A stretch of DNA of 64,000 bases from NCBI GenBank assembly GCA_034008185.1, contig CM067089.1, positions 23,408,213 to 23,472,212 of the forward strand, in the 5' to 3' direction. Source of the stretch: Gorsachius magnificus. Its lineage: Eukaryota > Chordata > Aves > Pelecaniformes > Ardeidae. The position numbers were made by a program, and so were the translations under genes. How positions within the stretch are numbered: position 1 is the stretch's first letter; every line of letters begins with the position of its first letter. Under the pieces are notes generated by a model. The model worked only from the letters and a program-made list of their open reading frames with translations. It was not told where the DNA came from and did no database searches. Below are positions 47,372-62,436 of this stretch, piece after piece.

Positions 47372-47443
47372 ATGGAGATCCCCAAAGTCCTCGGGTTCCT
47401 GGTACTGCTCGCGAGCCTGTTACCCTGTCTCCGATGCGTGGAG
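47372..47443 (+). CDS. Neurotrypsin-like exon 1, signal peptide
   Basis: ATG at 47372 opens 24 codons: a short polar start (MEIPK), a hydrophobic core ([13 protein letters not shown]) and a small/Cys-containing end (CLRC), a typical cleavable signal peptide. The exon ends in phase 0 at GAG/GTAAGA. An in-frame signal right before a good donor is the reason for choosing this start. Confidence 0.85.
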
Positions 47444-50400
47444 GTAAGAAATGGTTATTCTTCTATCTGCTTGTAGGAAGTCACATGGCTCTTTTAATAT
47501 CCTCACTGTAAGTGGATCTTTTTATTACTTGAATATGTTTTCCAAAGCGTCTAGGCGGCTGTGGTCTCTGGGAAGGGCTGGGGGTTTGAGGAGGGATTTA
47601 TTTCGTTGTGCATATGAATTTCAGAAAAGGATACAAAGCAGGAAAGCGGGATGTGCAGGGGCTTGCAGATGCTTTGGCTCAGGTTTCCTATGTTTCTCAA
47701 GCGCTGCAGTGACCCTGGCAGGAGAGATCCTTTGTTTCTGTTCTTTGCTGATTGACTCATTACCCCTATTGCTGTTGTGGACAGATGATCTACAGCGACA
47801 CGGACCTGGGGCAGTGACTGCAGCACAGGCTGTTTGCGCTAAAATTTGGTGGTGGTGATGATGGTCAGCGTTAGGGGATTTTGGAAACTGCTATGGGAAC
47901 TGGCAGCAACTGATCTTTCATTAGAAGGAAAGCATATTAGTTGGACTGCAGTTCTTTTGTTTATGGTCTGTCTCCAAGAAGAGCGGGTTCAGACTTTCAT
48001 TTATAGCCTGTTATTAGTCCACCCCATCCCTCTGTTGCCTGCAGGCTTATGTGTGTGCAGGTGCACGCTAAAAGCTAGGAGCCGGGGGACCTGGATTGCG
48101 GCTCAGTCACGCTTGGTGCAGTCACAACGGTGTAGCTTAGCTCACTTCCCTCTCTTTGCAAAGAGTTTTGAGATCCTCAGATAAGTCCTTCAGCACTGAG
48201 AGTTCACAGACCATTATGTAGGCTTGCAACAGCCTGATACATGCAGATAGGAGGATTTTTGACTGAAAAGAGTTTTTCAGTTAAATGTAGTGTTATTCAT
48301 GCATCCCCTTGTGCATACACACCTGAGGTCTGAACTGCTGTTTCTCAACCGTGTCAGTAACTCATCTTCAATATGCAGTGTCACATTTTGACTTCTGGAG
48401 GGTGATGCTGGAACTTGGCCATGGTTGTCAACACCTGCTGGGCCATATTCATAAGCCTGATTTGAAAAAGACATCTGCCATGAGTAGCTGTCATTCTTGT
48501 CAGGTATCTATGGGAACTATCTCTTCTTATTCCAGAGGTGGATTTGGTTTAATGCCAAATTTTACTCTTCCCTTTTTCCAGTGAGAGATGAAGCCGAGAG
48601 AAGCAAAATTACTGCATTTTGAAGAAAACCAGAACCGTTTCCAATAGCTAGTATTCTTTATATGCACTCCCACTCCTTTGCTCTGTGAGTTACACCTCCT
48701 TGCTCATATAAAAGTATTAAAACTGTTCATTAAAAAGTATTTAGAAATGAATTAAACAACAAGGAGCTAGCAGAAGCATGTACAGTTTCTTTTCACTCTG
48801 GGTCTGTGAAGATCTTGCACCTGCTTGCACACCGTGTAATGGTGTTGAGTGGAGATCCCTATCTCTCAGCCAGCAGTCAAGTTATAACCACCAAAAACAC
48901 TGCCTATAAGAGGAAATGCAGTTTTGGGGCCCAACAGGGTGCTGGAATTCAGAGAGCTTTGTTTCATACTTTTTGTTCTTAACTATTTAACCCCATTTGG
49001 ATAATAATACCATAGGCCATATCATAGTCTCGTGTATGAAAAACAAAATCCTCAAAGAGCCTTGTTGGATTTTCTTCTTTGGGTGTTTCCCACTTTGTAC
49101 ATGGACGTTTATTACTATTTTAACAGGGATCCCTGGGGGCATCATCCCATCATGTAGATATATCTCTGTTTGCTGCTGTGGCCACAGATGGCTTGCTCTA
49201 TAAACAGAGAGAGATTGAGTGATTATTTGTTATTTTCTTACTGGTAACGACTGTTTTCTTCTAGCTTTTCTTTCCATAGGCATCTCACTCAGGCTTCCAA
49301 TTCTACTGGGAAAGAACAAGCAGAGCCCTGTAACATAGTGCTTAGATCAAGGGTGAATGTCTGCAGGCCAGTAACTATTCATTTTGTTGTTAGTGGGCAG
49401 AGCTGTGATTGGATTTGAAGAGTAGCAATGGGGAGAGCAGGGAAAAGGCTGGTTACTAGGGTGTGTTTGCCTAAAGCGGCAAAAGGCCGAGCTGCTTTTA
49501 GGACATGCCCATGTTTATTTCATCGGATAATCATCTCTCTTCTTTTGCTCTGTTTCTTTTCCCAGGCTTTCCTGGGATCCCAGCCCAACCAAAACCATTT
49601 GCAGAGTGCAGGTAAGAACAAGAAGTTATTAATTCAGTCATCAGGCAGATTCTTTCCTGCAGTGGTGATCTGAGACCATAGGTACGATGAACCACTGCTA
49701 CCTGGCATTATTCCTTTCTTTCCATTGCTTCTTCAGTCTTTTCTCCTGCCTCCATGTCTGTTTATCTACTTTCCCAAAATGGCCAGACCACTTTCTTTTC
49801 TTCATGTCTAACACCCTTGCTGTTCCCTACTCTTCCCACATTTCTTTTTCTTTCATGTCTTTCCCCTTTTTTTGTCTTCCTCTCTCTTACCCCCAGTTAA
49901 TGCAAAGCCCATGGTGTGTTTTCCAGACACTGTAACTGTGTTTCATTTTTGTACCTTGCAGTTAACCTTCAGCTGTCACTTACCCCCTCTGGGCTTGGCA
50001 GGAGCTAGAAGGCAAACGGCATGAGGCAAAGTTTCTTTGTACTCTTGCTGTTTGCCCTATGTGTCTTTATGGCAGAAGGGTTTTCTGGAAGTGTTGGCTT
50101 CTTTTTGTTTGTTCAGTGAATACAGCTATAACTGTTATCCCTTTCTGAGTCTGCTCTTCCCATGTTACATGCTCTGAAAAGCCCACCCTCATACAGAATC
50201 TGGTTCTGGTTTCCCTCTTTCTTATTTCAGGGTCATAAATGGAGAGTTTTCTTCTTCTGTTAAAGACCATGTAAATTGATTGTTGGGGTTTCTTTGTATG
50301 AGATATTTCACATGGGCACTGGCCTGGAACATTGGCACCTGCACTCCTCCTCCCCCAAATAGGTTCCCTTTTCCTTCCTATACATTGGCTAAGTTCAGGT

Positions 50401-62400: not shown

Positions 62401-62436
62401 GTGCCCTGGATCAAGAAAGTGACCAAGCTAAAATGA
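47372..62436 (+). CDS. Neurotrypsin-like mosaic serine protease (PRSS12 paralogue)
   Basis: Secreted trypsin-like protease with the neurotrypsin domain order. Fifteen in-frame exons: 47372-47443, 49566-49611, 50939-51175, 52498-52621, 53350-53525, 54040-54187, 55030-55208, 55623-55764, 56823-57025, 58034-58175, 58431-58636, 59191-59269, 59520-59642, 60179-60459, 62126-62436 (TGA). The protein has 822 residues; human PRSS12 has 875. Order: signal peptide (1 to about 22), kringle (about 44-116), SRCR1-4 (about 119-549), basic activation site [11 protein letters not shown] (R576-I577), protease with H622, D672, S771 and Asp765 in the S1 pocket, implying cleavage after Lys/Arg. Neurotrypsin cleaves agrin at synapses; the same substrate here is only inference. 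The N-terminus has a 15-codon linker exon instead of a long Pro-rich segment. The locus beside CHCHD1 is not that of human PRSS12, so I treat it as a paralogue. No disabling lesion is seen. Confidence 0.93.
49566..49611 (+). CDS. Neurotrypsin-like exon 2, short linker
   Basis: A 46-base micro-exon (CTTTTCCCAG acceptor, GCAG/GTAAGA donor) encoding [15 protein letters not shown]. It converts phase 0 to phase 1 so that the kringle exon can join. It stands where human neurotrypsin has a proline-rich segment. Its small size makes it the least certain exon of the model. Confidence 0.7.
50939..51175 (+). CDS. Neurotrypsin-like exon 3, kringle domain
   Basis: A single phase 1-1 exon encodes one kringle: six cysteines in the order [24 protein letters not shown] and NCDC, with the conserved CRNPDG and PWC signatures. 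As in neurotrypsin it is closer to a compact, atypical kringle than to the plasminogen type, and it ends in CDC just before the first SRCR. Confidence 0.93.
52498..53525 (+). CDS. Neurotrypsin-like SRCR domain 1 (two exons)
   Basis: Exons 52498-52621 and 53350-53525 encode the first scavenger receptor cysteine-rich domain: [18 protein letters not shown], then VVCRQLGL, and in exon b [12 protein letters not shown] plus two further Cys. It is the most divergent of the four: CADHW replaces the usual CDDxW, and the LDDV/LDEV strand before the Cys is PLHLQSANC. Phase is 1-2 then 2-1. Confidence 0.88.
54040..55208 (+). CDS. Neurotrypsin-like SRCR domain 2 (two exons)
   Basis: Exons 54040-54187 and 55030-55208 give a classic group [40 protein letters not shown], then [20 protein letters not shown] and [11 protein letters not shown]. 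Six cysteines and the acidic residues of the usual cation site are present. Each domain is split after the CRQLGL segment in phase 2. Confidence 0.93.
55623..57025 (+). CDS. Neurotrypsin-like SRCR domain 3 (two exons)
   Basis: Exons 55623-55764 and 56823-57025 encode [36 protein letters not shown], then [19 protein letters not shown] and [11 protein letters not shown]. An added tail ([12 protein letters not shown]) links to SRCR4. The same a/b exon split is used. Confidence 0.92.
57026..58033 (+). other. Intron in the neurotrypsin-like gene (SRCR3-SRCR4)
   Basis: About 1 kb of intron with a T run (about 57625-57641) and a T/C-rich tract (57908-57947). Its last part is strongly pyrimidine-rich and leads to the SRCR4 acceptor. 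No further exon is seen; the open stretch running past the 57025 donor has no SRCR features. Confidence 0.7.
58034..58636 (+). CDS. Neurotrypsin-like SRCR domain 4 (two exons)
   Basis: Exons 58034-58175 and 58431-58636 encode [36 protein letters not shown], then [20 protein letters not shown] and [13 protein letters not shown]. The [17 protein letters not shown] block closely matches human PRSS12 SRCR4. A Val/Gln/Arg-rich tail leads to the zymogen hinge. A competing AG at 58405 precedes the chosen acceptor (58429-58430), but only the latter restores the domain. Confidence 0.92.
59191..62436 (+). CDS. Neurotrypsin-like S1A protease domain (four exons)
   Basis: Exon 59191-59269 carries the linker Cys (SGVCGMRLL), the basic activation site RRKKR and the new N-terminus IIGG. 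Exon 59520-59642 has GGWPWQASL and TAAHC (His622). Exon 60179-60459 has NDIALVRM (Asp672) and ISGWGDTG. Exon 62126-62436 has [10 protein letters not shown] (Asp765, Ser771) and SWGYGCG through [15 protein letters not shown]. The full triad and S1 Asp imply an active trypsin-specific enzyme, with the propeptide held by a Cys bridge after cleavage. Confidence 0.95.
60460..62125 (+). other. Last intron of the neurotrypsin-like gene
   Basis: A 1.67-kb GT-AG intron between the Asp and Ser exons of the protease. I see no recognisable element in it. ORFs on both strands at 60.55-61.5 kb resemble no protein I know. Confidence 0.7.

What the first reader, a model, noticed from the sequence alone, without database searches (positions are those of the whole stretch)
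47372..62436. Intact neurotrypsin-like gene beside SEC24C-FUT11-CHCHD1: a likely PRSS12 ohnologue lost in mammals
Seen: a complete 15-exon kringle + 4 SRCR + trypsin gene follows CHCHD1. Known: in human the SEC24C-FUT11-CHCHD1 block (10q22) continues into ZSWIM8-NDST2-CAMK2G with no such protease. PRSS12 lies on 4q26 in a region with SEC24D, NDST3, CAMK2D, SYNPO2 and MYOZ2, paralogues of 10q22 genes. Inference: this gene is the genome-duplication partner of PRSS12, kept here and lost in mammals. A second active neurotrypsin would bear on agrin processing and synapse studies in this lineage.
Basis: partly seen in the sequence, partly recalled or inferred. Interest (0 to 1): 0.75.

Follow-up and report, generated by a model that had tools for sequence, protein, structure and literature searches.

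The report
Bird neurotrypsin-like gene, absent from mammals
This is an intact gene for a second neurotrypsin, an extracellular protease that birds, reptiles, frogs, fish and sharks have beside the familiar one but mammals appear to lack; the second copy and its loss were already reported in 2010, so it is mostly a confirmation with better dating.

Summary
A 15-exon gene at 47372-62436 (+), introns GT-AG, encodes 822 aa without internal stop: kringle, four SRCR domains, basic activation site, trypsin domain with intact catalytic triad. SEC24C, a FUT11-type gene and CHCHD1 lie upstream on the same strand.

In a 56-protein tree the gene falls in a neurotrypsin-like (NTL) clade from sharks to birds, separate (100/100) from a PRSS12 clade spanning sharks to mammals, so the duplication predates living jawed vertebrates. 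A moved PRSS12 and archosaur- or amniote-only duplication are rejected (one first run did not reject). None of the 79 NTL-side database proteins is mammalian by listed name.

It is not new: a 2010 paper (PMC2865498) reported the duplication and mammalian loss, data not shown, and chicken annotation calls the gene NTL (PMC9516828). I add the older date, the SEC24C linkage, and a side finding: no kringle is detectable in the 7 bird PRSS12 proteins scanned. The window's own genome could not be searched; substrate and expression are untested.

The parts
47372..47443 (+). NTL exon 1: start codon and signal-like N-terminus
   Evidence: aligns with turtle N-terminus
49566..49611 (+). NTL exon 2: short N-terminal segment
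50939..51175 (+). NTL exon 3: kringle
52498..52621 (+). NTL exon 4: SRCR1, first half
53350..53525 (+). NTL exon 5: SRCR1, second half
54040..54187 (+). NTL exon 6: SRCR2, first half
55030..55208 (+). NTL exon 7: SRCR2, second half
55623..55764 (+). NTL exon 8: SRCR3, first half
56823..57025 (+). NTL exon 9: SRCR3, second half
58034..58175 (+). NTL exon 10: SRCR4, first half
58431..58636 (+). NTL exon 11: SRCR4, second half
59191..59269 (+). NTL exon 12: linker, RRKKR/IIGG activation site, start of protease
59520..59642 (+). NTL exon 13: protease with catalytic His (residue 622)
60179..60459 (+). NTL exon 14: protease with catalytic Asp (residue 672)
62126..62436 (+). NTL exon 15: protease with S1-pocket Asp (765), catalytic Ser (771), stop codon
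6727..18733 (+). SEC24C exons detected (syntenic marker)
22010..24775 (+). FUT11-type fucosyltransferase, two coding blocks (syntenic marker; name recalled)
40155..42400 (+). CHCHD1/mS37, three blocks (syntenic marker)

Best explanation
The gene is the orthologue of the annotated bird gene NTL (neurotrypsin-like), an ancient paralogue of PRSS12. The split predates living jawed vertebrates, most likely in the early-vertebrate genome duplications (inferred from position), and the gene appears to be missing from mammals. It most likely works as PRSS12 does: a secreted zymogen is cut by a furin-like protease at RRKKR/IIGG, giving an active trypsin-like protease that cuts after Lys or Arg, tethered and tuned by its kringle and SRCR domains. 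Shown: gene structure, domains, catalytic residues, phylogeny. Inferred: secretion, activation, activity, and an extracellular (possibly synaptic, possibly agrin) substrate.
For: Intact spliced reading frame; domains. Catalytic His, Asp and Ser, the S1 Asp and the following Trp identical in 27 of 27 NTL and 29 of 29 PRSS12 rows, and a dibasic activation site in 56 of 56. Tree: NTL and PRSS12 each one side of a 100/100 branch, sharks plus bony vertebrates in both. Window on the PRSS12 side rejected (p-AU 1.17e-10) and amniote-only duplication rejected (2.31e-8); archosaur-only duplication rejected by KH, SH and AU (1.05e-5) on a rerun. 0 of 79 database proteins on the NTL side are mammalian by listed name. 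SEC24C beside it. NDST3 faces PRSS12 in the vertebrates compared (PMC4359090, passages). Neighbours of lamprey synuclein genes have human orthologues on chromosomes 4, 5 or 10, VCL at 10q22 among them (PMC10451939, passages). Protease domain 98% identical to duck NTL and 88% to turtle NTL.
Against: The window's own PRSS12 was not found because the genome search did not complete. No outgroup roots the tree; the root is at the midpoint, though sharks in both groups favour it. NDST2 lies outside the window, and the 4q26/10q22 order beyond one search is recalled. Two positions, near the active site by recalled numbering, mostly differ by clade (residue 671: N in 20 of 27 NTL, Y in 26 of 29 PRSS12; residue 798: R in 19 of 27 NTL and in 0 of 29 PRSS12), so the substrate may differ. 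No expression data. The first archosaur-only test gave p-AU 0.171 despite a log-likelihood drop of 837. Mammalian absence rests on lists capped at the best 120; monotremes and marsupials were not tested apart.
Confidence: 0.9

Rival explanations
1. It is PRSS12 itself, moved to the SEC24C region in this lineage.
For: Same domain order and 53-58% identity to PRSS12 proteins.
Against: Window is 85-95% identical to bird, turtle and gharial NTL and sits with them; forcing it onto the PRSS12 side costs 120 log-likelihood units, p-AU 1.17e-10. Anas has both proteins listed (P0007, P0192).
Confidence: 0.02
2. It is a duplicate made within amniotes or archosaurs, not a genome-duplication partner.
For: The first AU run for the archosaur-only case did not reject (p 0.171).
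Against: Amniote-only duplication rejected (2.31e-8); archosaur-only rejected by all tests on a rerun; sharks and fish have both genes.
Confidence: 0.02
3. It is an ancient paralogue, but from a single-gene duplication rather than a genome duplication, its linkage to SEC24C being chance or later.
For: The tree dates the split only as before living jawed vertebrates and is unrooted.
Against: SEC24C beside NTL mirrors SEC24D beside PRSS12 (4q26 order recalled), as expected of a duplicated block.
Confidence: 0.08

Closest known systems
NTL / neurotrypsin-like (chicken GRCg7w; zebra finch LOC100229828, chromosome 6)
   Same: Same gene by orthology: joins four other bird neurotrypsin-like proteins at 100/100, 87-95% identity to them; a paper places the finch gene on chromosome 6 and gives the chicken name NTL (PMC9516828, passages).
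   Different: Another species' copy; SRCR4 motif CDN, not seen in the other 55 rows.
PRSS12 (neurotrypsin, motopsin)
   Same: Kringle, four SRCR, basic activation site, trypsin domain with all catalytic residues tested.
   Different: Separate group in the tree; no proline-rich N-terminal segment such as the macaque protein has; two positions that mostly differ by clade; beside SEC24C rather than NDST3.
DMBT1, CD163 and other SRCR proteins
   Same: SRCR repeats.
   Different: The listed DMBT1 rows carry no kringle-trypsin pair and cover about half of the query.

Membership tests
Neurotrypsin family (kringle-SRCR-trypsin) | Kringle, 3-4 SRCR, trypsin domain in that order | tested here: met
Neurotrypsin family (kringle-SRCR-trypsin) | Catalytic triad, S1 Asp, basic zymogen activation site | tested here: met
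Neurotrypsin family (kringle-SRCR-trypsin) | Cleaves agrin at alpha (VER/A) and beta (VEK/S) sites, calcium-dependent | not testable with these tools
   sites and calcium dependence from PMC9616769
PRSS12 orthologue | Falls in the PRSS12 group of the tree | tested here: not met
PRSS12 orthologue | Lies beside NDST3 | tested here: inconclusive
   upstream flank is SEC24C, FUT11-type, CHCHD1; only 1.6 kb of downstream flank is in the window; PRSS12 position
NTL orthologue | Nested in bird neurotrypsin-like proteins | tested here: met
   100/100 with 4 other birds
Ohnologue pair with PRSS12 | Split before living jawed vertebrates | tested here: met
   sharks and rays in both groups; tree unrooted
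Ohnologue pair with PRSS12 | Both copies lie in duplicated blocks (SEC24, NDST, CAMK2, SYNPO, MYOZ) | tested here: inconclusive
   SEC24C confirmed in the window; the rest outside the window or recalled; NDST3-PRSS12
Ohnologue pair with PRSS12 | Second copy present in the same genome | tested here: inconclusive
   own genome unreachable; both proteins listed for other species

The most novel reading that the evidence does not exclude
In birds the two neurotrypsins have divided the ancestral protein: PRSS12 has lost its kringle in place (not detected in 7 of 7 bird proteins scanned), so NTL is the only bird neurotrypsin with a kringle and may have taken over kringle-dependent functions such as Sez6 binding, while mammals such as primates and carnivores, having lost NTL, rely on the kringle of PRSS12.
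Probability: 0.25. Interest if true: 0.5.

Novelty: already known. Interest (0 to 1): 0.3.

Why it matters
Neurotrypsin cuts agrin, and its inactivation is linked to intellectual disability in people (PMC9616769 introduction; PMC2865498). Many other jawed vertebrates carry a second neurotrypsin with intact catalytic residues that work on mammals cannot see. Chick and frog studies of agrin processing that assume one enzyme may be measuring two, and a single knock-out there may be masked. Dating the split to before sharks, and the apparent kringle loss in bird PRSS12, make a division of labour testable.

Tried and rejected
Rejected: moved PRSS12, lineage-specific duplication, pseudogene, DMBT1-type SRCR protein (domains). 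The first archosaur-only test gave p-AU 0.171 with a log-likelihood drop of 837, which I took for a numerical failure; I reran it with a separately searched constrained tree and all the tests printed rejected it (drop 954). Both results are reported.

Led nowhere: the genome search on the window's own genome, the same request eight times, always busy. PMC8040251 is not held. Paper searches: PRSS12 with 'ohnolog' 0 papers; at least 4 of CAMK2G, CAMK2D, NDST2, NDST3, SEC24C, paralogon 0 papers; prss12l and similar names 2 sea urchin papers, listing only; ohnolog / lost in mammals / 10q22, 10 papers, of which I opened one for passages; chick neurotrypsin terms, 32 papers, 20 listed, none opened for this. 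The toad venom paper merely lists a 'Neurotrypsin-like' transcript (PMC10141085). Clade-diagnostic residues at 90% in both groups: 5, all in the protease; at 80%, looking at the protease alone, 9. No AATAAA or ATTAAA was found between 62437 and 64000. Structure prediction was not used.

Rows dropped: the 56-row tree is a hand choice from 303 database proteins fetched plus the window; one chosen row, P0081, fell out of the earlier 62-row tree by the length and motif filter. 231 of 304 proteins had a recognisable protease domain and entered the wide tree; the other 73 did not.

Full report
What is there. Splicing 15 exons from 47372 to 62436 on the + strand gives a 2469-nt reading frame and an 822-residue protein; all 14 introns are GT-AG. 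Pfam reports a kringle (51-117), four SRCR stretches and a trypsin domain (577-815). Each SRCR domain is split over two exons and has six cysteines. The catalytic His622, Asp672 and Ser771 and the S1-pocket Asp765 are present, and RRKKR precedes the IIGG of the activation site (the roles of these residues are recalled). A GC-rich, CpG-rich stretch lies just upstream (about 46600-47000), consistent with a promoter island.

Neighbours. Exons of SEC24C occur from 6727 to 18733 (with a recalled human query), and one of them prefers Sec24C over Sec24D in the PDB comparison. Fucosyltransferase coding blocks at 22010-23122 and 24146-24775 carry the N- and C-terminal family domains; the name FUT11 is recalled. 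CHCHD1/mS37 lies at 40155-42400. All are on the + strand, as is the protease gene.

Relatives. The protein search with the window protein returned neurotrypsin-like proteins of birds, turtles, a gharial, lizards, snakes, tuatara, amphibians, sharks, rays, a chimaera and ray-finned fish (best 120 of 5891 listed). Searches with a recalled human PRSS12 and with an alignment of coelacanth, lungfish and sturgeon PRSS12 returned the other group, from sharks to mammals. In the careful tree of 56 chosen proteins the two groups (27 NTL including the window, 29 PRSS12) are separated by a 100/100 branch, found in 100% of 200 bootstrap trees; each group broadly follows vertebrate relationships, and the window joins four other birds at 100/100. 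A quick tree of 62 rows, without shark PRSS12, also separated the two groups. A wide tree of 231 protease domains split 151 to 80, and none of the 79 database proteins on the NTL side is a mammal by its listed name. An intact mammalian NTL would be expected to score above the weakest listed hit (1081 bits), so its absence is informative; decayed remnants would not appear, and monotremes and marsupials were not tested apart.

Tests. Holding the window on the PRSS12 side lowers the log-likelihood by 120 (p-AU 1.17e-10) and an amniote-only duplication by 615 (2.31e-8). For an archosaur-only duplication the first run gave p-AU 0.171 with a drop of 837; a rerun gave a drop of 954 with p-KH and p-SH 0 and p-AU 1.05e-5.

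Two copies in one species. I compared the listed contig lengths in 12 species for which both rows give one: Excalfactoria (37.7 and 86.4 Mb), Mauremys mutica (129.9 and 145.6), Spea (38.4 and 165.5), Pelobates cultripes, Ambystoma, Narcine (254.6 and 375.7), Arapaima, Astyanax (57.5 and 27.3), Alosa, Paramisgurnus, Bombina and Hymenochirus. In 12 of 12 the lengths differ, so the two genes lie on different contigs. The NTL rows of Excalfactoria (P0017) and Ambystoma (P0081) were not in any tree and rest on 91% and 68% identity to the window protein. The window's own genome could not be searched.

Genome-duplication origin. In the vertebrates compared by PMC4359090, NDST3 faces PRSS12 (passages). 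Neighbours of the lamprey synuclein genes have likely human orthologues on chromosomes 4, 5 or 10, with VCL at 10q22 among them (PMC10451939, passages). From recall, 4q26 runs NDST3-PRSS12-METTL14-SEC24D-SYNPO2-MYOZ2 and 10q22 runs NDST2-ZSWIM8-CHCHD1-FUT11-SEC24C-SYNPO2L-MYOZ1; NTL fills the place of PRSS12 in the same orientation. With the pre-shark date this makes a genome-duplication pair the best reading, though the tree is unrooted.

How it works. PRSS12 is a secreted protease with a predicted furin activation site; it cuts agrin at GPPVER/A and KGLVEK/S, needs calcium, and its kringle has been linked to Sez6 binding (PMC9616769, abstract, introduction and two results sections read). NTL keeps every catalytic residue tested in 27 of 27 rows. 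The protease domain (98% to duck, 88% to turtle, 76% to great white shark) and SRCR2 (98, 93, 74%) are its best conserved parts over these three comparisons. Two positions mostly differ by clade: residue 671 is N in 20 and Y in 5 of 27 NTL rows but Y in 26 and N in 3 of 29 PRSS12 rows; residue 798 is R in 19 of 27 NTL rows and V, I, L, M or T in 29 of 29 PRSS12 rows. By recalled trypsin numbering both lie near the active site, so an overlapping but not identical substrate range is likely. This is inference.

Prior reports. [quoted passage not shown] A later paper says that an extra finch neurotrypsin on a 3-kb scaffold was a false duplication of the chromosome 6 gene LOC100229828, annotated NTL in chicken GRCg7w (PMC9516828, passages). 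It cuts against counting extra finch copies; I read it as concerning that fragment and not the NTL/PRSS12 pair, which is my inference.

A side finding. Pfam finds no kringle at E up to 10 in 7 of 7 bird PRSS12 proteins scanned, nor in the koala or crocodile row, whereas the turtle control scores 45.6 bits. In the precomputed domains 0 of 8 bird PRSS12 rows (the eighth is partial and was not scanned) but 17 of 20 bird NTL rows carry a kringle; the three NTL exceptions are two partial proteins and an isoform. In the alignment the region in the four birds shown is rich in Pro, Gly and Arg and lacks most kringle cysteines. The crocodile N-terminus does not align and may be an annotation error. The GC-rich first exon makes assembly or annotation error possible, but several of the bird proteins run on from a signal-like start into SRCR1. 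I know of no report of it, but ran no search aimed at it; the only kringle search joined it with neurotrypsin and agrin (listing).

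Noticed in passing
bird PRSS12 proteins P0183, P0185, P0187, P0188, P0192, P0232, P0236 (not in window): Kringle domain not detectable in bird PRSS12 (0 of 7 scanned) while turtle PRSS12 and most bird NTL rows keep it; koala PRSS12 also lacks it.
   Followed up: partly
window 58034-58175 (protein residues 471-480): SRCR4 motif begins CDN in the window where 54 of 56 rows have CDD and a snake has CAE; by recall this is a calcium-site residue.
   Followed up: partly
window 35160-36970: Reverse transcriptase ORF of 412 aa (RVT_1, 115 bits), probably a CR1-type LINE (recalled) between the FUT11-type gene and CHCHD1, with further ORFs downstream.
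   Followed up: no
NTL_Pituophis P0055: Snake NTL has a degraded SRCR4 motif (CAEGWTERAA) and a fairly long branch (0.29), hinting at relaxed constraint in snakes.
   Followed up: no
window 62437-64000: No AATAAA or ATTAAA within 1.56 kb after the stop codon; the 3' end may lie beyond the window.
   Followed up: no
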